NCBI GenBank assembly: GCA_015146655.1
Contig: VKHL01000131.1
Location: 1-64,000 of the forward strand
Direction: 5' to 3'
Origin: Ochromonas danica
Taxonomy: Eukaryota > Sar > Chrysophyceae > Chromulinales > Chromulinaceae
DNA: 64,000 bases
Shown here: one piece after another, positions 31,972 to 53,187 of the stretch
How the letters are laid out: each line of letters starts with the position of its first letter
Numbering within the stretch: position 1 is the stretch's first letter
The notes under the pieces: generated by a model
Databases searched by the model: none
Seen by the model: only the letters and a program-made list of their open reading frames with translations
Told to the model about the DNA's origin: nothing
Program-made: the position numbers and the translations under genes

Positions 31972-33796
31972 CTAATCGCAAGCCTCACCCGTGGGATTTC
32001 CTTTCGAGCGCTGCTGGAGAACATTATCCCCGAAATAGACAACATTCGCCATTCGACCATTAGGGTGAGCATGAGCATGAGCATGAGCATGAGCATTGTT
32101 ATGCTGCAGATGCAGTCCAAAGAGGAAAGCTCTACTATTGGTGTTGTCTGCATTGGAAAACTGAACCAGAAACTCATTCTGTCCTACAACCATTGCGCTA
32201 CTATTCACACGGAAAGTATGATAGCCACTGAGCGTTTCAAGCCCAGTATACGCCTGTTGGCCATTGATGTATAACACCAAAGGATCATCATGAGATACGA
32301 AGAGACTCATGCTACTCAACTGTTCAGCCTGTTTGACAACGTAATGACCTCTTGCCCAGACAAAGCAATCTTTGGGATAGCCTTCATTGGTTGCAAATCT
32401 GAAAAAATATTCTCCAACGCTGAGAAAACCAAACGTCGGAGCAAGCCTACGATAAGAAGTGTCGACTCCTTCAATACGACCAATCGATGTAGCCAATTCG
32501 CTAAATGGAAAGACATATGAAATATTCCACTCGGTCACGAAACCTGTCGGAGGCGGGACTGTGAAATCTTCACTGGCATCTTCGCCTAATCGCTGTGCCA
32601 ATGGAGGAAGTCGCTTACTGCTTGCCAGAGCTGGTCCACGTTGATACCAATACATCACAGACTGTGTGAAATCCTGCAACACACCATATTCAAAGCTGAA
32701 GTCGGATGCGAAGGGCAACTGAAACTCTTCGGTGAAAAATCTGTAAGCTGAGAAGTGGTTGCTATTGTCTCCGTACAAGAAACCCCAATCAGGAAAGTTA
32801 TGATTTTTCTCAAACCAGCACGAAGTTCCGAAGAAATCTTCACCTCCTGTGCCCTTTAAAACACGAGGATTTGTGGAAGGATCCATCAAAATCACTTCAG
32901 CACCATTATGAAACCACAAATCACGTCCATCTAGGATAGTCAGACCAAAGGTTAAGCCCAACAAATAACCACTGCCACGAGCATGGCCGATGTGATAGGA
33001 ACGTTTGAACTCATGTGGTTGACCATGCGGTTTCAACTGGCGACGGTCTTCCATTCGATAGCTTGCGTGAAAACGAAGTGGCTCTGGGAAAGGACAACGC
33101 GGATCATACATGTCATAGCTGATCTGAGACCACACACGCATCTTGATATCTCTGGGATCCTCGTTGATCAAGGTGAACTTGATTCTCTTCGCAAAAGGAA
33201 GCGGTGCCACCAGAGTGAAGGCACCGTTCTCCGAGATTTTGAACAAGTTGTTGTCTGCGCCATAACCAGAAAAGGTATTGCCCCACAAATCATCGTGATC
33301 ATGATAGATCCCGAAGAAGGCACCTAGAGGTGCTTCCACGGCAGGAGTAGGCGAGTCATCATAGTAGATGCGCAACACCATCATCATGGAGTCCTTCGTG
33401 CGAACACAGTGCTTAGGACGACCTGGTGAAGCACCCATGCCAGTTACTAACCAGAACAGTCTGTTTACAAGCAGAGAGGAAACCGGAGGAGGTCAACTAG
33501 GATGAGGAAACCGAGAAGTGAAAGGAGACGTACTTTACACAACCTGGCCCTTCTATATCAGCCAGCACAGTCTCTTGTGTTCTGGAAATACATGATCGAA
33601 ATGCGATCTTATTGGGGACGCGAAGTTTGGGTAAGGTCAGCATGCCATGGTAGGAGGTCACAGTTTCTGTACTGGGACAGATGGAGGAGTTCCTCAAACT
33701 GCTGTCTAGATTAGAATAGACAACTAGTGGAAGAAGAGTGAGAAGAAGACCAAATAAGCCAACTCTACCACCAAAGGTGACAGAGAAGAACATCAT
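31972..33796 (-). CDS. Secreted DUF2961 / glycoside hydrolase family 172 protein
   Basis: Exons 33534-33796 and 31972-33460 (73-nt intron with GTACGT donor, phase 2) encode 583 residues. An N-terminal signal peptide (FGLLLTLLPLVVYS) directs it to the secretory route. DUF2961 blocks appear in order: ADIEGPGCVK, VLRIYYDDSPTPAVEAPLGA then FFG, FKISENGAF with PLPFAKRIKFTLINE, FHASYRMEDRR, GSGYLLGLTF and the hallmark LKGTGGEDFFG with its Glu-Asp pair, then YRFFTEEFQLPF. GH172 enzymes act on alpha-fructofuranosides or alpha-arabinofuranosides (DFA I synthase, arabinan-active enzymes). A C-terminal beta-sandwich-like extension and an (Ala-His)n repeat near residues 555-565 are additions. The substrate cannot be told. 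The family is mostly bacterial, so ancient transfer is possible. Confidence 0.85.
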
Positions 33797-36746: not shown

Positions 36747-39700
36747 ATGTCCAACAACAACAATAACAACCAAAATAATAAACCAAAATACACTAAACTT
36801 CCATCATCTAAACCTCTCCGACCCTCTCCTTCCTCCTCCTCCTATCAAGCTGATAACAACAACACAGTGAGATTAAATCCTCCTTCAGCATCGGATAGTC
36901 AACCTCGACCTCCTGCTAGTACAATTGAAAAACTCTATGCTGACATTCTAGACGAAACCTTAACACCACCAGATGTTCGAAGTCGACTCATTGAATCTCA
37001 AACTTTAGAACAAAAATGGGCTTTTGTGAAAGTTCATCGCCATTCCGGTGAAAAACTACAAAATTGGACTGAAAAGGAGACTTCACTTCTTCACACGATT
37101 GAACATTCTATGAAACCTGATATCCTTTCAGTCCTTAACTTAAAGGTGTTACTATCATCAGCTAATCGTGACTTTATGACATCTTTCTTACAAGAACGAG
37201 GTGCTTCTATTCTCATCTTAATTATACTTCGTACAGTCAATAAGAAAGCTAACACTACTAACACAGTTGATGTAGCTTTCTTATATGAAGTGTTACTCTG
37301 TTGTAAGTTAGTAATGAACAATGCCATGGGTATGAAAGGTATCTTAGATGTACCTGGTTCATTAGATGCCATGGCATTATGTCTATCCTTTGATCATAAA
37401 CCATTAGCTCTATTAGTCTTAGAGATCTTATCAGCTAGCTGTTATAGTGAATCCTCCACAGAGTTAGTGTTACATGGTATTGAATTATTAGGTAACAAAC
37501 ATCGTGTAGCACCGTTTACATCTATTAATCAAGCTCTGTTAGAAGAGGATATTGAAGTGAAGACAGCCATTATGCAGTTTATTAATTCTATTATCATAGG
37601 AGGTGATTTAGAGACTTACGATGAGTTAAGGAAAGCATTAGATAGTGTGTATTTCTTTTATTCTTGTCAACAAGCTAAAGAACAAGTTGTGAAAGAGTTA
37701 TCAAGTATTGAAGATTTACAATCTGTTTCAGCACCTGTGTTAATGAAATATGCACAGTTTAGCTTAAGAGAAGGTGGAGCAGGAGGAGGTGGTGGTGGAG
37801 CAGGAGGAGGAGGGGTACCAGGGTTAGGCCCTCAACATCCACCAAAGCGTGTGATTAATATGGGTAAGCTAGAACCTGGTCGTAATCTGATTGCTTTCAA
37901 AGGTGTTCGGAAAAGTGCTATGCGTGGTGGTACTACTGGAGGAGGAGGAGGAGGTGGTGGTTCTTCAACGAATGTATTAGCTCCACCAGGTGCAGAGGCG
38001 TCACCTCGACTATTGGGTCAGTTTGACAGAAGTCGTACTCAAGGTATAGGAGGAGGTGGTGGAGGTGGAGGAGGAGGAGGAGAGACTTCACCTCGACTAC
38101 TTAGTCCGTTTGATAGAAGTCGTACCCAAGGTTTAGGAGGAGGAGGAGGTGAGGCACCACCACGACTATTGGGTCAACATGACAGAAGTCGTACTCAAGG
38201 TGGAGGAGGAGGTGGTGGTGGAGGAGGAGGAGGAGGAGGGAAAGGTCCCTATGTAGCAGTCGATGTAGCCAATCGTCTACAAGCACGAGAAGGACTAACA
38301 CAAGAGTATTGCCATGATGGATGGATCCAAGTGGTCGTGCTAGAACAGTCAACTACCGCTTGTTGCTTTGGTAGCGGTAGTGTTAGACCTTTCTTAAGAG
38401 ACCGTTGGTGTGTATTAGATGGGGAAGTGTTGAAGTTATACCCTATCCAACCTATTGGTAGTAATGGTAAGAAGATGAAAGGTAGTAGTGCACACACTCC
38501 TCCTCCTCCTGCTGCTAGTACCACGCAAGGTAATAATAAGGTACCGTCATTACCAGCACCGAATGAAGAGGTAATCAATCAAATGACAGAAGAACGATCA
38601 GTGCTAGTAAGTGATATTAAAGATCTAAGACGATCCGTGAGTGACAGTCACATGGTACACCTCTCTCAAAAATACCACTTCCCTGTGTTCGAGGTAGTGA
38701 CAAGTCAGGAAGTGTTCTCTATCGCTTGTCGTAGTCAAGAAGAGGTAGAAGGCTGGTTATTGTCATTACAAGCAGCAAGAGATCAGATCGTTATTATGAA
38801 GTCATCGTACTACCTTCATCCTTGCTATTTAGACTTGAAAGATGCGATGTTAGTCTCGAAGAGGTTCTTCATGTTATTAGAACAATATGATACCTTAACA
38901 AAGGAGATTAAAGAACAGTTGTTAGAACAGTCATCATCGATGGATGATGATGGAGGAGGAGGTGGTGGAGGAGGAGGAGGAGGAGGGGATGGTATAGGTG
39001 GTGGTAGTACATCTTCTACTAACATGACATCGTATCTACGAGGGTTAGATATTAACAATCTAGACGCTGTGTTTCAATATCTATCACATGAAGTGGTAGC
39101 ATCCGGTAAAATGCCATTATTATTAAATCTATTGCAAGAGTTATTAGTCATACCATGTGATGCGATTGGTCGATGGGAAGCTATCATACGTGGTATACGT
39201 AATTTACGACGTGTTCATACCAGATTAACAATGGCACAACAACAACAACAGCAACAACAACAAAATGGCAATAATGGTAATATTGGCAATATTGGCAAAA
39301 GTGGCAATATTGGCAAAAGTGGTAATAATGGTCAAAGTATGTATGGTGGAGATATGATGAATGCTGGTGGTGGTAATGTTAACGTTAATATAGCGTTAGA
39401 GAATGCATTTAATGATCGTAGTTTAATTGATCTATTAGAAAAGAAGAATGAAGATGAAGGATTATCATCAGGTTACTATCAAATGTCAAAACTAGCCATT
39501 GACTTAATGAAACTGAAAGAAGAGAAATTCAGTTTACAAGAAAGTTTACAACAGGTAGTACAAGAGAAACAAGAATTAATGAATCAACAAGATAATCAAA
39601 CTATGATAAGACTATTACAACAAAAGGAAGAAGAGGTAATGGAATGTAAACGACTCATTAATGAATATCTTGCTACAATGGAATTACATGAGAAGCAAGT

Positions 39701-42700
39701 GTTAACATTACGTCAACGATGTAGTCAATATGAACAAGAATTACAACAACAAGCTGCTAACATAGCAGCAGGAGGCGGAGGAGGAGGAGCAGGTGGTGGT
39801 GGTAAAGGTAGTGGCGAGGTAGTGGTAGCAGAGGTAGATCCGCGGTATGAGAAGTTTGTGAAGATGAAGAAGATGTTACCTGAAGGAGCAGTTAGACAAA
39901 AGATGGCCTTGGAAGGCTTTACTCCACAAGAGATTGATGCCTTCATAGCCAATGGACCTCCTACTACTGCTACCTCTGCTACCGCCACTACCTCGAACAC
40001 TACCTCGTCTACCACTACCTCGGTAGTGGACGATGAGAAATATGCTAAATATGTGAAAATGAAGAAGATGTTACCTGAAGGAGCTATCAGACAGAAGATG
40101 TCATTAGATGGATTAACTCAACAAGAGATTGACATCTTCTTTGGTGTTATACCTCCTCCTCCTCCTCCTACCACCACTACCTCGGTAGTGGACGATGAGA
40201 AATATGCTAAATATGTGAAGATGAAGAAGATGTTACCTGAGGGGGCTATCAGACAGAAGATGATGATGGATGGGTTAAGTCAACAGGATATTGACGTGTT
40301 CTTCGGTGTAGCTACTACCACTACCTCGAACACTACCTCTGGTAGTAGTAGTGGTAGTGGTAGTGGACCTGCACCACCACCAGCGTTATCCTCTCAACAA
40401 GCTATACGATATAACAAATATGAGAAGTTGTTAAAGAAAGCACTCAGCGCTACCACTGCTACCACTGCTAGCACTACCTCAGCTGCACAAGGTAGTGGTA
40501 GTGGTAGCAGTGGTATAGAAGGAGTATTAAGTGGTCTAGAGAAACAGCTATCTGAAGATGATAATCTATCAGAAGAGGATAAGAAACTCTTCTTAGCTCA
40601 TCTACGCCATCATGCTACCACTGCCACCACTACATCGAAACAAGGTAGTGCTGGCAGTGCTACAGCTAATAAGACAGCAGCAGCAGGAGCTACTAATACA
40701 ACGATATTACGTGTCAAACTAAAGAATCTGTTCTGGAATAAGCTAACCGCTACAGAGATTAGTCATACCTTGTTTAATCGACTAGTAACGATTGAATTGA
40801 CTGAAACACAGAAGATCTTCCTGGAGACATGGTTTGCTAGTAAGTCTATTAATGCTAGTACTACTAACAAGACGAATGATGGGGTATCAAATGGGAAAAG
40901 ACGAAATAGTAGTCTAGCAGGAGGAGGAGGTGGTGGTGGAGCAGGAGGAGGAGGAGGAGATGGTAGTAGTGGTTCAGCAAAGTTAATCTCAGTATTAGAT
41001 AGTAAACGCTTACAGAATGTCTTGATTATTTTAGGTAAACTACGTCGTAGTCCAGAGGAAATGATTGATTTAATCTGGCAGTTAGATGTTAATCAGTTAA
41101 CATTAGACTTAACATCTATTATTACGACTGCATTACCTACACCAGAAGAGGTACAAGCTGTCTCATCCTATACAGAAGAAACAGCACGTAATAGTCTAGA
41201 ATCAGCTAGTCGATTCATCTTTTATCTTACACGTATACCACGTCTAACAATAAGGTTAACATGTCATGAGGTGATGTTAACCTGGACATCTCAAGCGAAG
41301 ACTTTAATAGCACAATTTCAATGTTATCATAGTGCTTATCATGACTTACAAGATGAAGCTTTAACAAAGGCATTTCATAGTTTATTTGCTTTCATATTAA
41401 GTATTGGTAACTATCTTAATCAAGGTAGTTCCTTTGGACAAGCGAAAGGTATACGAATGGATACGTTAGAGAAGATTACAGCGTTAAAGACTTCATCTCC
41501 ATTACCTGTTGATGATGGTCTGCTAGCTAGCTTGAAGGTGAATGAAGAGGTAATGGAGAAGTTACGAGTTTGTCTTCCACCGGGAGCATCTTTAATACAT
41601 GCGTTAGCTTGGATGATTATGAACAGTCAGGAGATGATTGGTAGTGGTAGTGGTAGTAGTTCAACGGCTAGTACTAGTCCTACTCCTACCACTACCTCGA
41701 ACGCTCCCTCTAAACCTACCAAGCCAGCTACCACTACCTCGAACACTACCTCGAACACTAACACAGCAGCGTTATCATTATCATTATTAAATCATTGTAA
41801 ACTCTTCTTACTCTCTCCTTCTTCTTATCAATCTCTCCTCATCGTATCAGAAATGAGTTATGATCAATTAAGACAAGAAGTCTCTAACTTAACAACTAGT
41901 CATAATCTAGTCAAACAAGAATATCTGATACATAAAGAGAATAAACTACCTTTACTATTAGATCATAAGAAAGCAATTGATAAGAATAGTTTGAAATTAG
42001 CTAATCCTTTATATAAAAAATGTAAAAATTTCTGTCAAGAAAGTGAAAAGATTATGGCAAGAGTGAATAAAGAGAATTTACAATTAGAACAAGAAATGGA
42101 TACTTTATTAACTTCTTTTGGTGAGCCACCATTAGTTGTACCTACTACTACTACTAACACTACTGCTGCTGCTACTACCTCTACTAACACTACCTCTACC
42201 AAGGTAGTGACTGGTGATGCTAACACTACTGTAAGTAGTGCTGCTGCAGGAGGTAGTGGTAGTAGTGGAAGTAGTAGTGGTGGAGGTGGTGGTGATCGTG
42301 TGAAAGGGTATTTCAAACTCTTAGCATCCTTCTTGAAAGCTCTTTCTAAAGCACATGAAGAGAATATGAAACGTGAAGAATTCTTATTAACAATGAATGC
42401 TAACCGTCAGAAGAAAGCAGCCGCTGCAGCAGCACAAGCACAGGCAGCAGCGACGGTAACGGTTGTACCTCAGCCTACCAAACCAGCGGTAGCAGCAGGA
42501 GCAGAACGTCCTGCACTACTTCGTAATCGTATGGCTAGTACAAGAAATGAAGAAACAACACCAGTAGATAATATATTTGGAAGATTTCATTCTTTACAAA
42601 CTGAACAAAATGAAGAAGTTTTGAATAACTATCGAATGAAACTCAGGTATGTTAGTCACAGTATATCGTATGTTGGATAAGTAGTTGATTTGGGAGGTGC

Positions 42701-42982
42701 TAATACTATACTGTGTGTGTGTCTGTGTGTGTGTGTGTGTGTGTGTCTGTGTCTGTGTGTGTGTGTCTGTGTCTGTGTAGTTGTCGACAACGAAGTACAC
42801 GAGCAGATAGTGCAAGTATGGCAAGCTACTTGATACAGAATGGTATGATGACCAGTGCTAACCCTACGCCACCACCTGCTACTACCACTACCAAACCTAC
42901 TACTACCACTACCAAGCCTGCGGTTACTACTGCTCCTCGTATCTTGGGACGTCCCCCTTTTCGTGTTCCTACTTCTGCCTAG
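36747..42982 (+). CDS. Giant formin with inserted PH domain, WASHC3-like motifs and FH2 domain
   Basis: Exon 1 (36747-42646) and exon 2 (42781-42982), split by a TG-rich intron in phase 2, encode 2,033 residues. Residues about 50-350 are the GTPase-binding/FH3 armadillo region (LYADILDETLTPPDVRSRLI, LVLEILSASCYSESSTELVL). Poly-Gly linkers lead to a PH domain at about 514-682 (HDGWIQVVVLEQ, FEVVTSQEVFSIACRSQEEV, EGWLLSLQAAR). FH3 helices resume at about 687-830, then a coiled coil at 910-1010. Three repeats of a KMKKMLPEGAIRQKM motif lie at about 1031-1188. FH2 spans about 1318-1890, with LKNLFWNKL and GNYLNQGSSFGQAKGIRM. FH2 dimers nucleate and elongate actin filaments. A Pro-rich FH1 is nearly absent (one run of six Pro). 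Exon 2 adds a Thr/Pro/Lys tail. Codons are AT-rich. Confidence 0.92.
42713..42780 (+). repeat. TG/TCTG tract abutting a 3' splice site
   Basis: Almost the whole 3' half of the formin intron is TG dinucleotides with TCTG interruptions, ending in GTGTAG, with no ordinary polypyrimidine tract. Similar TG tracts precede acceptors in the CYP97 genes. Confidence 0.85.
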
Positions 42983-44575
42983 AAGACTAACTAACTAATG
43001 GTAACCCTCAACCTAGATGGAGAGGAAGAAGGACATGATACTACATCATCATCATCATAACTAACTACACTAACTAACTACACTAACTAACTACATTAAC
43101 TACACTAACTAACTACACTAACTACATTCACTGTACTAACTAACTACACTAACTAACTACATTAACTACACTAACTAACTACACTAACTACATTCACTGT
43201 ACTAACTAACTACACTAACTAACTACACTAACTATATTAACTACATCAACTACATTAACTATACTAACTACATTAACTATATTAACTATATAATATCTAT
43301 TAATAAGTCTGTTTTCATAATATCTGCTTCTGCTATCACTGCTGTTTGTTAACTAGTTGGTGTAAGTGATGGAATGATGTTGAGTGACGTTTGATGATAT
43401 TTTTTGGTTTTTTGGTTTAATTGAATTAATTTTCGTAATGCGTTACCCTCTTCTTCTTCTTCACTACTAACCTCACATTACCACAATACTACTTCTATCT
43501 CTTCAAGCTTAGTGGATGTGATGTAGACTAGTCAGACTTTGTGTGGTGGCGCTAATTGACAACTCTGTACACGGGAAGTTAACATAACATGTGAACTTAA
43601 ACACTGTGTTCGAAAATTCGGGAATTCGAATGTTCGTGTGCATACAGTAGTCCAGTCGACAAAAATACCGACACCCCAAAACAGCCCTGCTGACTGCTGA
43701 CTGCTGACATTTAGACTTTATTTTAGACTTTGCTAAATCTATAGCTTGACAGAAGTGTGGGGCGTGCACAGAACTGTGGGGCACTTCGGCTTTGTTCACA
43801 ATAATATAAGAGTTATAACTCAATAAAAACTGGTTTGATAAAAAACGGCCACCAGAAGTGCTGCTGGGGGGTGTTTGCGTTTTTTCCGAACCCTTAAAAT
43901 AAGATTTAAATCACCCACATCCCTTTCCCAAAAGTCTCATATTGTCCTTCTGTGCATGCCCCACTATAGAAACGCTAAGTTTTGGGACTGACTACTCGTG
44001 CGAGGTTTGTCCTAGAGATGATCACCTAGTGTATGTAGTGTTATTATATTGCAAATCAATCATTCTACACTAACAAACAATAACACAACTAAGTTAATAA
44101 GATAATAACATTGAAGAAATGGCGCTTTTTAAGTTTAAGTTGTTACACGATGGCAATGCAATGAATGGCAGGCAATGCAGAACCAAAAGGTGGGAAGGTC
44201 ACTAGACAACAGACTGCAGCTAAAATCTAACGAACACATTCCTTCCTTCCTCTTGTTTAGTTAGATAGAACAGAAGACAGAGAGAGTTTGAAATAGAGAA
44301 TGAGCGAAGAAGGTTGATAATGGCGGCACTACTGACGTCTAAGTTAGACTTGAAGGAGGAGGGGGAGGAGGAGGTTTAGCAGGGTTAGGATAGGGTAGAG
44401 GTAGTGGGAAAACAAACAAATCATCACAAGAAATCTATCTCTCCTCCACCAAACACACTAACATAACACACTCCATGAGGAGGAGGATATCACAGTAAGT
44501 GTAGAATAATGGATAACAGAGAGTTTTAACACTCAACTATATCATGTGTGTGTCAGTGAGTGAGTGAATGTGTAT
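42983..44575. other. Intergenic region with CTAA-rich minisatellite
   Basis: It holds a minisatellite at about 43060-43290 (listed separately). Elsewhere no gene was recognised on either strand. The 3' ends of the convergent formin and triose-phosphate translocator genes flank it. Confidence 0.45.
43060..43290. repeat. CTAACTA-type minisatellite with about 66-bp higher-order unit
   Basis: Short TAACTACAC and TAACTACAT units are arrayed, with a larger block of about 66 bases, ending in CATTCACTGTAC, repeated twice. It begins about 75 bp after the formin stop codon, so it may lie in the 3' UTR. Confidence 0.85.
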
Positions 44576-45894
44576 TTAGTGCTTGGCAGCACCTTTCTTA
44601 GCGTACTGCTTCTTAGCCAAAGAGTAAAGCAAAGTACCCAACACAGCCACACCAGAGCCAATACCACCTATCAAGGTCATAGGGGTACGGAAGACGATGC
44701 AAGATGCAACAATGATGACAACACGCTTCAATGTGTTCGCCACAGAGTGAGTGACAGGAGAGAGTCTGTCGAGAGCAAGGAAAGATGCCTCATTGTAGAT
44801 ATAGAAGGTGAGACCAGAAAGAAGAGAGTAGATGAGAACTTCCTTGCCCTTGCCAGCCGCGGTGACGAGGTCATAGACAGTCTTGAAGTCCTTGAGATCG
44901 AAGATAGCAACCAAAGGAAGAGTGCTGATCAAAGCAAGAATAGTCACCACAGAGTAGAAGTTCTGAGGACCCAAAGCCTTGGCCCAAGGCTTACCCAAGA
45001 CACCCTTAGAGACGACATTCTTGAAAGCTGCAGCCTGGTTAGCAGCAGAGGCGGCAATGAGAGCAGTCCAAGTGAAGGAAAGCTCCTTAAGAGATGCTAA
45101 GCCAACACCTCCAATAATAGGGATGAGAGCAGCATAGACCATAGGATGATCAATATCCTTGAGTAACAAGGCATTAGTAGCAGCAGCGAAAACAGGTTCA
45201 CCAGCCTTAACAATCTGACCGAAAGAGACAGCTCCAGCACCAAGAGCTAAGACAGAGAAAGCATGAGCTAAGGCAGCCCAAACACCCACAGGGGTCAACT
45301 CCTTCCAGTTCTCAGAGGTCATCTTAGGAGCCTGACGCAAACCAGTGAGCCAGAGAGGGAGAACAAAGACAACACCAACCAACAACTGGAAAGCAGACAA
45401 AGCCCAGTGTAAGTTTGATCCACCAGCAGCATTCTTGCCAAGAGCAATGCATGCCTTCTTGTTATAGATGTTGTCTAGGAAAAAGGTCAAGCATTGTTAT
45501 TAGAAAGAGTCCATCAAAAGCATTAAATCAAGTGTATCTATAACTCACAATAGATGTTGCCAAGATACCACACAGCCAAGTAGACGACAAGCTTGGTGTT
45601 GTCATTCCAGATGGCACTTAAGAAGGACTTCTTCTCTGGGGTGCTAACAGAGCTAGAAGAAGAAGCAGCAGCAACCATCTCACCACCCAGGGCACCATCA
45701 GCTTGATGAGATGAGAGAGGCATGGAGCGGTAGTAGGGCATGACATTCTCGGTATGCTGAGAGATGGGGGATGACTTGGTGAGAGGACGAAGAGCATTCT
45801 GATAGCGGCCATTGCTCATGGGCTTCTCCAAAGAGAAGGCATTAGCAGCTACGGCAGAAGCTAGGATGAGGATGATATGAGTGAGCTTGACCAT
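44576..45894 (-). CDS. Plastid triose-phosphate/phosphate translocator (TPT family)
   Basis: Exons 45549-45894 and 44576-45474 (74-nt intron, phase 1) encode 414 residues. The start MVKLTHIILILASAVAANAF is a signal peptide with an ANA-F cleavage motif, the ASAFAP-type bipartite plastid import signal of secondary red plastids, followed by a Ser/Arg-rich transit peptide. The mature part has the drug/metabolite-transporter fold of plastidic phosphate translocators. It opens with LVVYLAVWYLGNIYYNIYNK and continues through TPVGVWAALAHAFSVLALGA, VKAGEPVFAAATNALLL and FYIYNEASFLALDRLSPVTH, ending LYSLAKKQYAKKGAAKH. The C-terminal Lys-rich end is typical. It exchanges triose phosphates or phosphoglycerate for phosphate across plastid membranes, exporting fixed carbon; which of the four membranes cannot be told. 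Codon use is GC-richer than its neighbours, suggesting high expression. Confidence 0.95.
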
Positions 45895-46874
45895 TTCTTA
45901 CTATAATTCCATGACACAATAAGAGAGAGAGAGGAGGAGGTGAGAAGGAATTCTCAAGGATGACGGAGGATATTCAAATAAATGAAGGAAGATCCAGAAC
46001 ACTTACAATAATATGGGATATGAACAATATTGATTATTGTTGCTTTTTGTAGTAGTAGAAGTTGTTGTTATATTGTGTGTGGTTAAGATTGACTAGGACT
46101 AACTGACAACGGTCTGTCTATTTGTCTGTCTACTTCTGCTTCTTCTTCGTTGTTGTTGTTGTTCTTTATGGCCAGGAGAGCGGCAGGTGGTCTAGGCTAG
46201 CATACGATACGCTGTCGTCGTCGTTGAGGTTGAAAGCTTTGGCTCGCTTCTTCTTCTTCTTCGCTCACCCACCCACTCTCACTGTCTGCCCTCTGTGTGC
46301 AACGATGCACACACTGTCTTTGGCACTGCTGACGTCTGCAACAATGACTGACGCACTCACACTCACAGCGCTGACACAGCAGAACAACTGACACACACAC
46401 AACACTCGCTGAAAAACCAGCAGAACAACAACAAACAGACAGACAGACAGAATTAAGTTCACATCCCCGAAAATACAAGAGCCAAAAACATGATTTAAAA
46501 CTGCATAAAAGGAGTTTGACAACATGAAAACCCTTCACTTCAAAGCAGCAAAGAGAAAGTCGAAATGATTGAGATAGAAGAAAGTATAGTTTGTTGTGAA
46601 AGTTGGAGGTTAGAAAGCCTCTTTTGAGAGTTTTAGGTCTACGCCTCATCATCATGAAGAAGTTGTATGATGATGACAAATGTTAATGACGTGGTGATGA
46701 TGCCATATGATGTCATGTAATGGTGTTGGCGATTGCAAATGAACGAAAGGAGAAGCCGAAGATAACTGACATGGCGACTAGTTAACTTAGTTTGGAAAAG
46801 AGGGCAGGCAGTTCGGAGTTGCTGCTATATTGTAGATTATGTAGCTATTATCCATCATCCCAGCATAAAGAGGG
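45895..46874. promoter_or_regulatory. Upstream region of the translocator gene with TGACGT/TGACGC motifs
   Basis: No gene seen in this 980-bp stretch. Relative to the minus-strand translocator start at 45894, it is upstream sequence. It contains TGACGTC at 46330, TGACGC at 46349 and TGACGTGG at 46687. These resemble bZIP-bound CO2/light-response elements described in diatoms. Their use here is inference. Confidence 0.35.
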
Positions 46875-47791
46875 TTACATCACAGGTACAGGGGGGAAGG
46901 GCGATGGTCGAGCACGAGGCTTTATTTTCATCATTAGTCCATTCTCCGTATGAATAGTAGCTCCTAACACAAAGAACAGAAGTCACAGTCAAGACCCAAC
47001 AGATGAGAAGCACAAAGAGGATTGGGTTTTACCTGTTCGCATACCCACTTTATCGACAGGAATGGCAAGCTCAAGATCAAAGCGTTGCAAGATCAAAGCA
47101 ATGCAAGTAATCGACTCCATAAATGCAAAGGTATCTCCAACACATTTACGAGATCCACCACCAAAGGGCAGGAATGCGTAATTGGCATTCACTTCATTGG
47201 GATAGAGTTGTTTATGAAGAACACTGAAGGAAGAGAATCCTTCCCAACCAATATTCTCTGCATCTTCCTCTTTCAATTGCGTCTGTTGTTGTGGTTTCGC
47301 GGCGGCGGCGGCTTCATTGGTGGTGGCAGTTTGGTGATGGACAGGACATCCTGCCGCTGAACTCTCCGAGGAATGAATAGGACATTTCTTCTTCTCCTCC
47401 GCTGGACCACTCACAGAGGAGCCTTTGTTACCTTCTTCTTCATTCCCTTTATAATAAGCAAAGGCACCTGGAGAGCGATCTTTCAAGAATCTGTCTGGAT
47501 TGAAGACATCAGGTTCATCCCAAAGTAAAGGTGATCGATGCATATTGTAAGTGGACAAGAAGATGTCTGTTCCTTTAGGAACATAGATGACATCATTTCC
47601 ACTTTGCTCTGCTGTCTTGCCGTTGTAAAGATGTTGATTGTGATAGTTTGGTAAGACATCATCTTCCAAAGCACGACGAATGAGTAAAGGAGGTTCGGGA
47701 TAGAGTCGCAAGGTCTCTGCTAAACATAAACGAATTGTTGGCAAGCGCATGACATCGTCATAGGTTGGCAAACGACCCTATGACATATAAC

Positions 47792-47838
<47 letters not shown>

Positions 47839-48887
47839 CAAGCTCACAGTTGATAGATAGAGAGATAAAGACAAGTGTAATCTAACCTGCAAGACATTAT
47901 CAATCTCATCTTGTACACGATAATACCATGTTTTGTTCTTAGCCAATTCGAAAAATGTCCAAGTCAAGACAGCTGCTGTTGTTTCATGTCCAGCTACAAG
48001 CATTGTCATGAGATCATCACGTAGTTGATGTGAAGAAGCATCCTCTCCTCGCATATCCACGAGAAAGCGTAATAGAGAAGGATATTGACGAGCATCTGGA
48101 TGACTCTACAGGACATCATCACATCATATCAAATCATGAGCTGAGCTTAGCACCCACAACGACCAAATCTCAAGGTTATTCTTACCTGTCGAGCATCTTC
48201 TGTTGCCTTCTCCACACGTTTCTCCCAATCATCTACATCACCTAATTGTTGACTAGCAAAAGCTTTCTCAATTAACTCATCCAACACTTCATTCAACATC
48301 TTCATATTATCTTCAAACTCCTTCAATTGTGGGAACAGTCGATTAGCGAAAGGTAAAGACCAATAAGGAATAAAGGATGTAGAACGATGTTCTGCTTCTT
48401 GTAAAGCACGATAGACAGCTTTTACAATGGGTGACGTACGAGCCACAGAATTAAACTCATAGTTAAACACTGCCTTGCCTAATCATCAAATCACAGTGTA
48501 TGACTCTCACAGTTAGTACATGTCTTTCTCTCAGCATTCATTCATTCTCCACTTACCAATAACATCCAGTGAGACGGAACAAAACTCTGTCTCCATATTA
48601 ATCGAACCATCTGCTCTTTGTATTTCTTGTAATTTACGAAGAAGAGGAATATTACAATCTACAAAGAGTGACATCTACAAAAACAACAAAATAGAATCGT
48701 TTGAATCTGTTATGATGATTGTAACAATAGGTCTAATAGAGTATATTATGTCACTAACCATAGAGTTCAGCCATGCTCGATGAAAGCCTGGAACAATAGC
48801 CTTGCGACGAACTTTCCACGTCTCTGGATCAGCTGGAATCAATCCTTTACCCATGATTGGCTTCAAAATCTCAGCTAGAATACCTAT

Positions 48888-48924
<37 letters not shown>

Positions 48925-49753
48925 GAAGCAGAGACAGTGTCAACACAAGATATCTTGTCATTCTTAGCTCATCATCATTCTTATCATTACCTTTATCATA
49001 GCGTAATGGCTTCTCCTTCAAAATATGTTTTGCCATAACAGGATCAGAAATGACAAGAAATGACTTTGGACCAAATGCTAATTTGAAAACAGGTCCATAT
49101 TGTTGATAATAACCTTGTAATAGAAGGAATAAAGGACCTCCAGCTAATTCAGCTAAATTACCATCCAAGATACGTGCTAAGAAATGAAAGAAATTACCAC
49201 GAAAGGTATTAACACCTTGTACCATGGGAGCACCATCTAATGACTTGATTAGACCAAATTGTTGGAATAAATTGGATGCAAGAATTCTCCATCCATCCCA
49301 TGGATAGACGACAGGTGTGTCCTCTGGATTACGATATTCTGGTCTCCATAGTGTCATTCGTAATGGTGAGAAGGATGGACCTTCTTCGAAGAATCTTCTT
49401 GCACGTTCTAATTGCCAATCAAATCCACTTTGATATCCTTCCCATGCTTCTTCAATGACTGGTTGACTAGCATCAACATAAGGAGCATGAATCTCATTTG
49501 GTAGAAGAGGTTCACGACGTTTTTTCAACATTGTTGTTGTTGTTGTGGTGGTGGTTGTAACTTGTTCCTCTTGTACTACTTTCATTTGTAATCGATGAAA
49601 GAGTATATTAGTTTTAGGAGATAGATAACTACTCCTTGGTCTCCATCCTTTTGCATGAAACCAAGTCAATTGACAAAAGATGTAGATTATGATATAGAGA
49701 TGGTAATGATGGTAACGATGATTATGACGTGAACCTTGTAGTAAAGAATGCAT
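46875..49753 (-). CDS. CYP97: Cytochrome P450, CYP97 family (carotenoid hydroxylase-like), copy A
   Basis: Seven phase-consistent exons, 48991-49753, 48759-48883, 48557-48674, 48186-48478, 47887-48105, 47033-47777 and 46875-46963, encode 783 residues. CYP97 features: long N-terminal block with [20 protein letters not shown] and [39 protein letters not shown], oxygen-binding AGHETTAA (471-478), ExxR as ETLR (527-530), and heme Cys 718 in [14 protein letters not shown]97 enzymes hydroxylate ionone rings of carotenes in plastids for xanthophyll synthesis. A hydrophobic N-terminus ([11 protein letters not shown]) suggests secretory-type plastid entry. Residues about 607-680 are a lineage-specific insert holding KCPIH and GCPVHH. 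It is divergent from copy B, and introns 1, 3 and 7 here match or lie near positions in copy B. Substrate unknown. Confidence 0.92.
47793..47835 (-). repeat. TG tract in CYP97 copy A intron 5
   Basis: About 20 TG units (CA on the plus strand) lie 15-20 nt before the acceptor of the 109-nt intron between exons 5 and 6. Copy B has no intron at this position. Confidence 0.85.
48893..48920 (-). repeat. TG tract in CYP97 copy A intron 1
   Basis: About 14 TG units (CA on the plus strand) directly precede the TTAATAG acceptor. The homologous intron of copy B has a TG tract in the same place. Confidence 0.85.
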
Positions 49754-50795
49754 CAAAAAATCAAATTATTTATGCAATTTTTAGCACTAATACAAGCAAA
49801 AGCAAAAGCAAGAATAGACACCAATAGAATTGGATTGTCGTGGAAGGGGGTAGTAGTAGTAGAATCAGAATAATACGAATTTAACTGATTCTTTGAAATT
49901 CAACTCTATCCAATGTCAAGCAAGACAGAGAGAATAAGATAGACTGACTAGAGGAGAGTTGCAATGCAAGCAATAGACTAGACTAGTAGCAGCAGACAGG
50001 GAGAGACAGGGGCGAGAGAGGAAGAAGTTGCAGTCTTGTTGGTGTTGATTGCAATTGGACGTTCTAAGATTGGACTGCATCATGGACCACACCGGCCACT
50101 TCCCTCCTGGGGGAGACTTAATAGTCGGTATTTACTTGTTTGACAGGTGAGATGATGGGGTTTTCTAATTCCGTCTGCTCACTCAGACACACACACTTGT
50201 GACTCACTCACTCAGTGGAAGGAGGGAGAAAGGGTTGGTTGATAGGTTGGTGTAGACAATGTGGCATGTCAGTTCAGTTTCCAAACAGAAATTAGATATA
50301 GATATAGTCTGTTTTGGGAATTGAAAGAAGCTTTGGATTATATAAATAGAATGGTAATTAAATTACAATAACTAGCTAGACTAATATGCATTACGATAGG
50401 TGATAGAGCTAGCTAGTTCCTAATCCAACCTAACCTTCTAATTCATCTATTATAGTAATTGATGTTAATAATCCATAGAAGCATATATATCAGATGTAGC
50501 TATAGTAAGGAGGGTTTTCATCAAACAAAGTACGAGTTAAAACTCTGAAAAGATGAGATTTGACCTGTCCGTCCATGCCATGCATACCATGCCTCAGCGC
50601 CTCTTTGTCTCCATTGAGGTTGACATTGCCAGGTTGCTCCAAATCCTTTCCCTTTGCCTGCCATTGCCTTTGCTTGCCTTTGCTTGCCTTGCCTTGCAAC
50701 TGCTTCTTCCTTTGCCTTGCAAGCCTTGCAAAAATCCACTGCAAGGATATCTTCTTCTCTATTAATCTATTATTATCATAATAACAACGACAATA
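49754..50795. other. Divergent promoter region of the CYP97 pair
   Basis: The 1,042-bp spacer between the two start codons would hold both promoters. A CTTTGC/CTTGC-rich imperfect repeat lies at about 50640-50735, just before copy B. No independent gene was recognised. Confidence 0.5.
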
Positions 50796-51503
50796 ATGTT
50801 TCTTCTTCCTTTTGCTTTCTTCATTGTCATTGTAATTGTTTGCAAGGCATTTCAATTGCCACAACAACAACAACTACTACTACCAAGAATAACAACAACT
50901 ACTACTACAAAGATCTTTCAACAACAACAACAACGACGACAAAGATGTCAAACTAAAATGGAAATCTTTGAAGGAAATCCTTTTGGTTTAAAAGTTTGGA
51001 ATACAGTCTGGAAGCTTCCATTCCTCCAACACAGTGAACCAGGTATCTCCCCTACTGCCTTCGGAGATGCTGCACAAGTTATCAAACATAATATCTTACA
51101 AATCTATGGAAATGAAACAAGTTATGATGGTGCACCAATAGCACAAGGTGAAATTGATGGTTTATTAGAAGGTTCATTATATTTAGGATTAAAAGAATAT
51201 CAAGAACGTGTAAGTCCCCACATGCACACTGACACTGACATAGACGCATACACACACTGTACTGTGTCTCTCTTGGTAGTTGATTACTAATGAATGCCTT
51301 TGTAATGCTTTGGTTTGGTTTGTTTTGGTTTAGTTTGGTTCGTTCTATAAGCTAGTCTTTGGTCCAAAATCATTTATTGTGATTTCTGATCCTGCTGCTG
51401 TACGACATATTTTACGTGATACTTTCCGCTTCTATGACAAGGTAGGTAACCATCACCATCACCATCATCATTATTCGCTATAGAAGACATCATGCTAACC
51501 GCG

Positions 51504-51561
<58 letters not shown>

Positions 51562-53187
51562 CATAGGGAGTGTTAGCAGAGATTTTAAAACCCATTATGG
51601 GTAAAGGACTTATTCCTGCTGATCCTGAAACATGGAGAATACGTAAGAAGGCAATTGCACCAGGATTTCATCGTGCTTGGTATAATGCCATGTGTAAGAC
51701 ATTTACTAACTGTATGGAACCTTTATATAATAAACTTGCTCGAGCTTCTGAGACTGGTGAAGTTATTAATATGGAGATTGAGTTTTGCTCTGTCTCCTTG
51801 GACATTATTGGTAAGACGACCCCATAGACTATAATGGTAACTTCTTCATTTGTCATCATTATGTTTGAATGCTATGATATGATACTAGGCAAGGCTGTCT
51901 TTAATTATGAGTTTGGTTCTGTTACTAATGAATCACCTGTTGTACGAGCTGTCTACTCTGCTCTCAAAGAGGTTAGTCATCGATGATGATGATCTAGTCG
52001 ATCTAGTATGATGACTGATATCTTGTGGTAATGTGTTTGCTCCTATAGGCGGAGCATCGTTCGATGATTCCTTTCCCTTATTGGGATCTTCCCTTTGCTA
52101 ATCAATTAGTACCACGTTTACGTAAATTTAATGCTGATTTGAAGATCTTAAATGATGTCCTTAATAAACTCATTGAAGAGGCATTACTCTCTGCTAATAA
52201 AGGCGATGCTGAGGTACAGTATATATACACTACACACTTACCCTTTCTCCTTCTACCTACTGTACCTTATCAGAGAGCAATAGCTAACATATCCTTTGTT
52301 ATACTCATATATATCAGGAGCTAGAGAATCGTGACTATGAGACGATGGCTAATCCATCTCTCTTACGCTTTCTTGTTGATATGAGAGGAGAAGATGTTAC
52401 GTCACATCAACTACGTGATGATCTCATGACAATGCTTGTAGCTGGACATGAAACAACAGCAGCTGTCTTAAATTGGGCACTATTTGAAATTGTACAACAA
52501 CCTGAATTACTCAAGAAGTTAAGGAAAGAAATTGATGAAGTCTTTGGTCCTTATGATGCTAATCAAACAACGATGAAGACAGACTATATCATGCGTATTG
52601 ATGATATGATGAAGTTACCATTAACTCGTATGTGTTTAACAGAATCATTACGTATGTATCCTGAACCACCATTATTAATTCGACGTGCTTTAGTTGATCA
52701 TGAAATTCCTATTAACCCCAAGAAGATGAAAGTGAATCCTTATGGTGTAGAGAAGTTAAAGATTATGCGAGGAGCTGATCTTTTCATTTCATTATATAAT
52801 ATACATCGTTCAGAAGAATATTGGAAAGATCCTAATACTTTTAATCCTGAACGTTTCTATGAAAATGTTATACCAAAAGAGATTGATCAGACAGAGAAAG
52901 AAGAAACAACATGGCATGGTTATCAAGTTAATCCAAGTATCTTCACGAGTGCATTATATCCTAATGAAGTACATGCTGATTATGCTTTCTTACCATTTGG
53001 TGCAGGTGCAAGAAAATGTGTTGGTGATCAATTTGCTTTCATGGAAGCTACTATCATCTTATCTAACTTGATTCGTAACTTTGATTTCGAGTTTGCTATT
53101 GATCCGAAAGAAGTGGGTACTTTTACAGGAGCAACGATTCATACTCGTAATGGATTACCATTTCGTATTCATCGTCGTAAGGCTTGA
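50796..53187 (+). CDS. CYP97: Cytochrome P450, CYP97 family (carotenoid hydroxylase-like), copy B
   Basis: Six exons, 50796-51209, 51334-51441, 51567-51810, 51889-51971, 52049-52213 and 52318-53187, encode 627 residues. The start [20 protein letters not shown] is a signal peptide ending in KAF, a plastid bipartite presequence pattern. Gln- and Thr-rich low complexity follows, then the CYP97 body: [48 protein letters not shown] (380-387), ESLR (447-450) and heme Cys 572 in [11 protein letters not shown]. It ends [19 protein letters not shown]. Close identity to copy A around the I-helix ([19 protein letters not shown]) shows they are paralogues. Intron content differs: copy A has an extra intron after its first PGFHRAW block, while copy B splits at LKE/AEH. 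Probably xanthophyll biosynthesis in the plastid. Confidence 0.93.
51505..51559 (+). repeat. TG tract in CYP97 copy B intron 2
   Basis: About 27 TG units run up to TTTCATAG at the 3' splice site of the intron that follows YDK, homologous to intron 1 of copy A. Confidence 0.9.

What the first reader, a model, noticed from the sequence alone, without database searches (positions are those of the whole stretch)
36747..42982. Formin with a PH domain splitting FH3, WASHC3-like motifs beside FH2, and almost no FH1
Seen: a PH-like block (about residues 514-682) sits between two halves of FH3-type helices. Three repeats of a KMKKMLPEGAIRQKM motif precede FH2. The only polyproline is one run of six. 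Known: the repeat closely resembles the DPRYARYLKM...AIRNKM..EGLDP segment of WASH-complex subunit CCDC53 (WASHC3), and FH1 normally delivers profilin-actin. Inference: this formin may bind phosphoinositides and use the WASHC3-like motifs as actin- or partner-binding modules in place of FH1. Similar single motifs near FH2 may exist in other protist formins, so the combination rather than the motif may be new.
Basis: partly seen in the sequence, partly recalled or inferred. Interest (0 to 1): 0.72.

Follow-up and report, generated by a model that had tools for sequence, protein, structure and literature searches.

The report
Algal formins with WASHC3-type motif arrays
This algal actin-filament-building protein (a formin) carries, in front of its catalytic domain, three copies of a small module known from a different actin machine (the WASH complex), and most other formins of the same genome carry it too, which hints that the module is a general and still unexplained actin-assembly part.

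Summary
Window 36747-42680 is one open frame of 1977 aa; a likely 3' intron moves the stop to 42982. It carries a GBD, a PH domain splitting FH3, a coiled coil (by eye), three CCDC53/WASHC3 motifs (Pfam 6.2e-16) and FH2. PH and FH3 are sub-threshold in this protein alone, but a paralog in the same genome (contig C50) has the same order with PH at 7.6e-8 and FH3 at 2.4e-8.

The wider finding: PF10152 matches at 17 places in 7 genes of this photosynthetic alga: the true WASHC3, five of six formin genes (1 to 5 copies, N-terminal to FH2), and an SH3-RhoGEF-PH-FYVE-polyproline protein with a WH2-C-acidic-like tail. So the motif is not special to this formin; it looks like a shared actin-assembly module. 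AlphaFold predicts three helices (pLDDT 85) with no significant PDB match. PH in heterokont formins is published; my searches found no paper linking CCDC53 to formins. Most likely the array binds a partner, perhaps actin or profilin-actin, beside FH2, supplementing a poor FH1; the partner is inferred, not tested.

The parts
36747..42680 (+). formin open reading frame, 1977 aa
36906..37445 (+). GTPase-binding domain (Drf_GBD), residues 54-233
   Evidence: Pfam 1.2e-17; 1.3e-18 in the genome search
37404..37724 (+). first half of FH3 region, residues about 220-326
   Evidence: 41% identical to the C50 segment that matches Drf_FH3; own Pfam score only 0.097
38319..38792 (+). PH domain with a long insert, residues about 525-682
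   Evidence: fragment 0.0057; paralog PH 7.6e-8; joint profile hits PH proteins in PDB
39045..39266 (+). second half of FH3, residues 767-840
   Evidence: 0.21 on the whole protein, 0.0031 on a fragment, both below cut-off
39459..39746 (+). probable coiled coil, residues about 905-1000
   Evidence: by eye; no predictor was run
39837..39956 (+). CCDC53 motif copy 1, residues 1031-1070
40032..40151 (+). CCDC53 motif copy 2, residues 1096-1135; three helices predicted
40152..40169 (+). the only PPPPPP run, residues 1136-1141
40194..40313 (+). CCDC53 motif copy 3, residues 1150-1189
40713..41495 (+). FH2, best stretch, residues 1323-1583 (profile 9-239 of 372)
41496..42470 (+). C-terminal part of FH2, divergent, with an S/T-rich insert
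   Evidence: second FH2 stretch counted on the whole protein, but no FH2 hit when residues 1583-1902 are scanned alone; extent by eye
42570..42646 (+). C-terminal tail with NIFGRFH, shared with the C50 paralog; DAD not recognised
42647..42780 (+). probable 3' intron (acceptor 42780 or 42795)
   Evidence: no transcript data
42781..42982 (+). probable last exon to the stop codon

Best explanation
It is a Diaphanous-type formin of a photosynthetic alga. SHOWN by sequence: GBD, FH3 split by a PH domain, three CCDC53-type motifs, FH2; the same order in one paralog, and the motif N-terminal to FH2 in three further formin genes. INFERRED: a Rho-type GTPase on the GBD and a lipid or protein contact of the PH, which lies inside FH3 (roughly between its inhibitory and dimerisation parts), localise and open the protein. 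The flexible motif array then works as a string of small three-helix partner-binding modules next to FH2, most likely bringing actin or profilin-actin to the barbed end and so supplementing a minimal FH1. WASHC3's C-terminus and the GEF-type protein on C87 would use the same module beside Arp2/3-activating tails.
For: PF10152 gives 17 matches in 7 genes: WASHC3, 5 of 6 formin genes, and one protein that reads polyproline, motif, WH2-like (0.11), basic segment, acidic tail. Each of the 15 aligned copies, scanned alone, matches PF10152; one also matches RecX_HTH1 weakly, 0.064. Copies number 1 to 5 per formin, in low-complexity linkers; K-M, K and G are invariant. Diverged copies show dN below dS, e.g. 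0.10 against 0.72 for copies 2 and 3 of this gene. Both GBD formins (2 of 2 genes) have the PH and few polyproline runs. AlphaFold gives a three-helix model at pLDDT 84.9. Profilin, WASH, strumpellin, ARPC2 and CYFIP-family matches are present.
Against: No binding partner was tested. The motif matches no WH2 model and its model has no significant PDB match. Polyproline and motif coexist in C66, C121, C87 and WASHC3, so the motif does not simply replace FH1. C50 still has 12 prolines per 100 aa before FH2, ours 5.3. C66's two copies are far apart, not tandem. Near-identical C50 copies look like recent repeat expansion, with dN 0.02 and dS 0. The sixth formin, C124, lacks the motif. FH2's C-terminal part scores nothing on its own in this protein, so FH2 activity is not certain. 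In the passages read of a WASH review (PMC8047104) CCDC53 appears as a coiled-coil assembly subunit, with no actin contact named.
Confidence: 0.36

Rival explanations
1. The motif is a docking site for a shared adaptor, for instance a WASH-complex or endosomal factor, that brings formins, the GEF-type protein and WASHC3 to the same membrane or network. Actin is not touched by the motif itself.
For: The same motif is in WASHC3, five formins and one protein with PH and FYVE domains. WASH and strumpellin are present. Tandem copies would raise avidity.
Against: The motif lies beside FH2 or a WH2-like tail rather than beside the membrane domains. Formins with quite different N-termini share it. No adaptor is known to me.
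Confidence: 0.3
2. The motif is a self-association or autoinhibitory element: copies pair with each other, with FH2 or with FH3, setting dimer state or activity.
For: Small helical bundle, repeats next to a probable coiled coil and FH2, basic first helix in most copies.
Against: WASHC3 and the C87 protein carry single copies without FH2 or FH3. Copy number varies 1 to 5.
Confidence: 0.13
3. The motif is a UBA/CUE-like bundle that binds ubiquitin.
For: Three short helices with a G/P turn after the first, by eye.
Against: No UBA family hit in Pfam for 15 copies. The one UBA chain among 8 Foldseek rows has E 8.1, probability 0.02, rmsd 11.5. None among the 5 VIA rows.
Confidence: 0.06
4. The arrays are largely spacer: repeat expansion in a low-complexity linker with no specific partner.
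For: C50 copies are up to 100% identical at DNA level; flanking linkers are low-complexity.
Against: Diverged copies conserve protein over DNA; the same motif in 7 genes matches one Pfam family.
Confidence: 0.07

Closest known systems
Diaphanous-related formins (mDia1, INF2, FMNL)
   Same: GBD, FH3-type helices and FH2 in the same order; the best PDB matches are INF2 and mDia1
   Different: PH inside FH3; three CCDC53 motifs and one PPPPPP run where FH1 normally lies; no recognised DAD
WASHC3 / CCDC53 (Pfam PF10152)
   Different: The formin lacks the rest of the family profile; the genome has a separate full-length WASHC3 on C64
PH-bearing heterokont formins (Grunt 2008, PMC2386819, passages read)
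   Same: PH together with FH2, reported in two stramenopiles
   Different: The passages do not give the PH position relative to FH3 and CCDC53 has 0 occurrences in the main text
PHCF formins (Pruyne 2017, PMC5628938, passages read)
   Same: PH domains in a formin
   Different: PHCFs have terminal PH domains and no detectable G, DID or DD; here GBD and FH3 are present and PH is internal
WH2 arrays and FH1 profilin-actin delivery regions
   Same: Repeated short modules beside an actin-assembly unit
   Different: No WH2 match in 15 copies; a small folded bundle is predicted

Membership tests
Diaphanous-related formin | FH2 domain | tested here: met
   PF02181 1.6e-37 on the whole protein; the part after residue 1583 gives no hit alone
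Diaphanous-related formin | GTPase-binding domain | tested here: met
   PF06371 1.2e-17
Diaphanous-related formin | FH3 domain | tested here: inconclusive
   Below cut-off in this protein (0.21 whole, 0.0031 and 0.097 on fragments); over cut-off in paralog C50 (2.4e-8)
Diaphanous-related formin | FH1 polyproline region | tested here: inconclusive
   One PPPPPP run at 1136; 5.3 prolines per 100 aa in 1005-1322
Diaphanous-related formin | DAD | tested here: inconclusive
   No Pfam hit in the tails of this protein or C50
PH domain | Profile match over the curated cut-off | tested here: inconclusive
   0.0057 in this protein alone; met in C50, 7.6e-8
PH domain | Predicted PH fold | tested here: inconclusive
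   Single-sequence AlphaFold, pLDDT 39.9
PH domain | Phosphoinositide binding | not testable with these tools
   Needs a lipid-binding assay
WASHC3/CCDC53 | C-terminal motif | tested here: met
   PF10152 6.2e-16, three stretches
WASHC3/CCDC53 | N-terminal coiled-coil part of the family profile | tested here: not met
   Best stretch covers profile 89-144 of 147, against 1-146 in the C64 gene
WH2 | WH2 profile match in the motif | tested here: not met
   None of 15 copies at E up to 10
PHCF formins | Terminal PH domains and no G/DID/DD | tested here: not met
   GBD present, PH internal
UBA/CUE fold | Structural match of the motif model | tested here: inconclusive
   No significant match

The most novel reading that the evidence does not exclude
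The C-terminal CCDC53 motif is an unrecognised general actin-assembly module: a 40-residue three-helix unit that binds actin or profilin-actin. In this algal lineage arrays of it have taken over part of FH1's delivery job in most formins, and in WASHC3 the same unit feeds the WASH complex.
Probability: 0.3. Interest if true: 0.85.

Novelty: new variant of a known kind. Interest (0 to 1): 0.57.

Why it matters
In the papers and passages I saw, no function is given to WASHC3's C-terminal motif. Finding it in five of six formin genes and in one putative Arp2/3 activator of the same genome shows that it is not confined to the WASH complex and points to a general role in actin assembly. That makes a simple test possible: does the 40-residue module bind actin, profilin-actin or a common adaptor? 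It also adds a GTPase- and possibly lipid-regulated, FH1-poor formin architecture.

Full report
WHAT IS THERE. The window is part of contig C131 of a 31.2 Mb assembly of 337 contigs. The assembly has 47 matches to the light-harvesting family PF00504, so it is a photosynthetic eukaryote; that it is a stramenopile is my guess and was not tested. The formin frame runs 36747-42680 without interruption (1977 aa). Pfam on the whole protein finds FH2 (1.6e-37), Drf_GBD (1.2e-17) and three CCDC53 stretches (6.2e-16). Drf_FH3 is below cut-off and PH is missed. The part of FH2 after residue 1583 is divergent and gives no hit when scanned alone.

PH INSIDE FH3. In this protein PH is weak by itself: 0.0057 on a fragment, matching only the last part of the domain. 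The case rests on the paralog on C50. Its two neighbouring frames give GBD (1.8e-19), FH3 (2.4e-8), PH (7.6e-8, over the cut-off), five CCDC53 stretches and FH2 (6.2e-64). They are collinear with our protein at 27-53% identity in pieces. A profile of the two PH regions finds 17 PDB sequences at E up to 1. Sixteen are proteins that bear PH domains (recalled from their names) and one, VPS38, is not; three lie below 0.002. The profile contains the C50 sequence, so this is not independent. FH3's second half follows the PH in our protein (profile 115-186, 0.0031) and its first half precedes the PH in C50 (profile 15-87, 8.5e-9); the first half scores only 0.097 in our protein and the second half gives no hit in C50. 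The GBD family is found in exactly these two genes of the assembly. The AlphaFold model of our PH, made without an alignment, failed.

THE MOTIF. Three copies lie at residues 1031-1070, 1096-1135 and 1150-1189. A profile built without them still finds all three (143 bits, against 12 for the best of 2000 shuffles). Genome-wide, PF10152 gives 17 matches in 7 genes: C64, a full-length WASHC3 (profile 1-146), C17 x4, C66 x2, C131 x3, C121 x1, C50 x5 and C87 x1. FH2 gives 9 matches in six genes: C17, C50, C131, C66, C121, C124. So five of six formin genes carry the motif N-terminal to FH2; C124 has no PF10152 match and no motif pattern. The five are not independent, since C131 and C50 are paralogs, but their other domains differ: GBD-PH (C131, C50), a PHD finger on the preceding frame (C17), ankyrin repeats and a sub-threshold WW on the preceding frame (C121), long polyproline (C66). 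Joining neighbouring frames into one gene is an assumption. The seventh gene, C87, reads over several frames SH3, RhoGEF, PH, FYVE, polyproline, motif, then a WH2-like stretch (0.11, below cut-off), a basic segment and an acidic tail with one phenylalanine. That tail fits the WH2-C-A pattern of Kollmar et al. 2012 (PMC3298513, passages and section 11 read) by eye only.

Fifteen of the 17 copies were aligned; the two left out are C50 copies identical in DNA to copies kept. K-M, K and G are invariant. There are two subtypes: one with a G before the turn (WASHC3, C17, C66, C121) and one a residue shorter with LPEG (C131, C50, C87). Diverged copies show dN below dS (0.10/0.72 and 0.23/1.0 within this gene; many others are saturated). 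Near-identical C50 copies do not (0.02/0), which fits recent duplication. Each of the 15 matches PF10152 alone; one also matches RecX_HTH1 at 0.064, and none matches WH2. AlphaFold on this gene's three copies gives helices 6-17, 20-29 and 34-40 at mean pLDDT 84.9, pTM 0.59. Foldseek and VIA-align give nothing significant, and no PDB chain matches the motif below E 0.1.

FH1. Our protein has one PPPPPP run, between motifs 2 and 3. The C50 main frame and the C17 FH2 frame have no run of four or more. C66, C121, C87 and WASHC3 have both runs and motif. C50 still has 12 prolines per 100 aa before FH2, against 5.3 in our protein, and two neighbouring profilin matches lie on C59. Replacement of FH1 is therefore a possibility for a few genes only; supplementing it is the safer wording.

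HOW IT MAY WORK. Shown: the architecture, copy number, constraint between diverged copies, presence of the motif in six genes that are formins or WASHC3 and in one putative activator, and a confident small helical model. Inferred: that the array binds actin or profilin-actin and serves FH2 (0.36), with adaptor docking close behind (0.30). The position directly before FH2, or before a WH2-like tail, favours the first. The presence in WASHC3, and in a protein with PH and FYVE domains, leaves the second open. In the WASH review passages read (PMC8047104) CCDC53 acts through its coiled coil, and no role of its C-terminal motif is named.

WHAT IS KNOWN. PH in stramenopile formins is in Grunt 2008 (PMC2386819, passages read), and is cited again by Pruyne 2017 (PMC5628938, passages read). 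The Grunt passages also mention an FH1-less formin, ForC. Searches: formin with CCDC53 (32 papers, 20 listed); formin with WASHC3 (19 listed); PF10152, IPR019309, 'CCDC53 domain' or DUF2360 (2 papers); three or more of CCDC53, domain, FH2, protist, WH2 (156 papers, 20 listed). No listed title or abstract start ties the motif to formins. I opened seven papers in all, in passages or single sections. Domain databases that could not be queried here may already show the combination, so novelty is claimed only against these searches.

Noticed in passing
L022:855-5490 (G000 contig C87): Probable gene with SH3, RhoGEF, PH, FYVE, long polyproline, one CCDC53 motif, a WH2-like stretch, a basic segment and an acidic tail: a possible Arp2/3 activator with its own GEF.
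   Followed up: partly
window 38004-38201: Three PRLLxx(F/H)DRSRTQG repeats, separated by glycine-rich stretches, between FH3's first half and the PH; RSRT is absent from the C50 main frame.
   Followed up: partly
L018 (G000 contig C17): Formin with four CCDC53 matches before FH2 and a PHD finger on the preceding frame; further upstream a PTEN-like stretch by eye, without Pfam hit.
   Followed up: partly
L020 (G000 contig C121): Ankyrin-repeat frame (with a sub-threshold WW) next to a frame with one CCDC53 motif and FH2, probably one gene.
   Followed up: partly
window 42716-42778 and 43060-43300: TG-rich run inside the formin's probable 3' intron, and ACTA-type repeats downstream of the gene.
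   Followed up: no
window 44576-53187: Triose-phosphate-transporter family frame, then three frames matching cytochrome P450, two on the minus and one on the plus strand.
   Followed up: no
window 31972-33438: Frame on the minus strand with a DUF2961 match at 8.7e-33.
   Followed up: no
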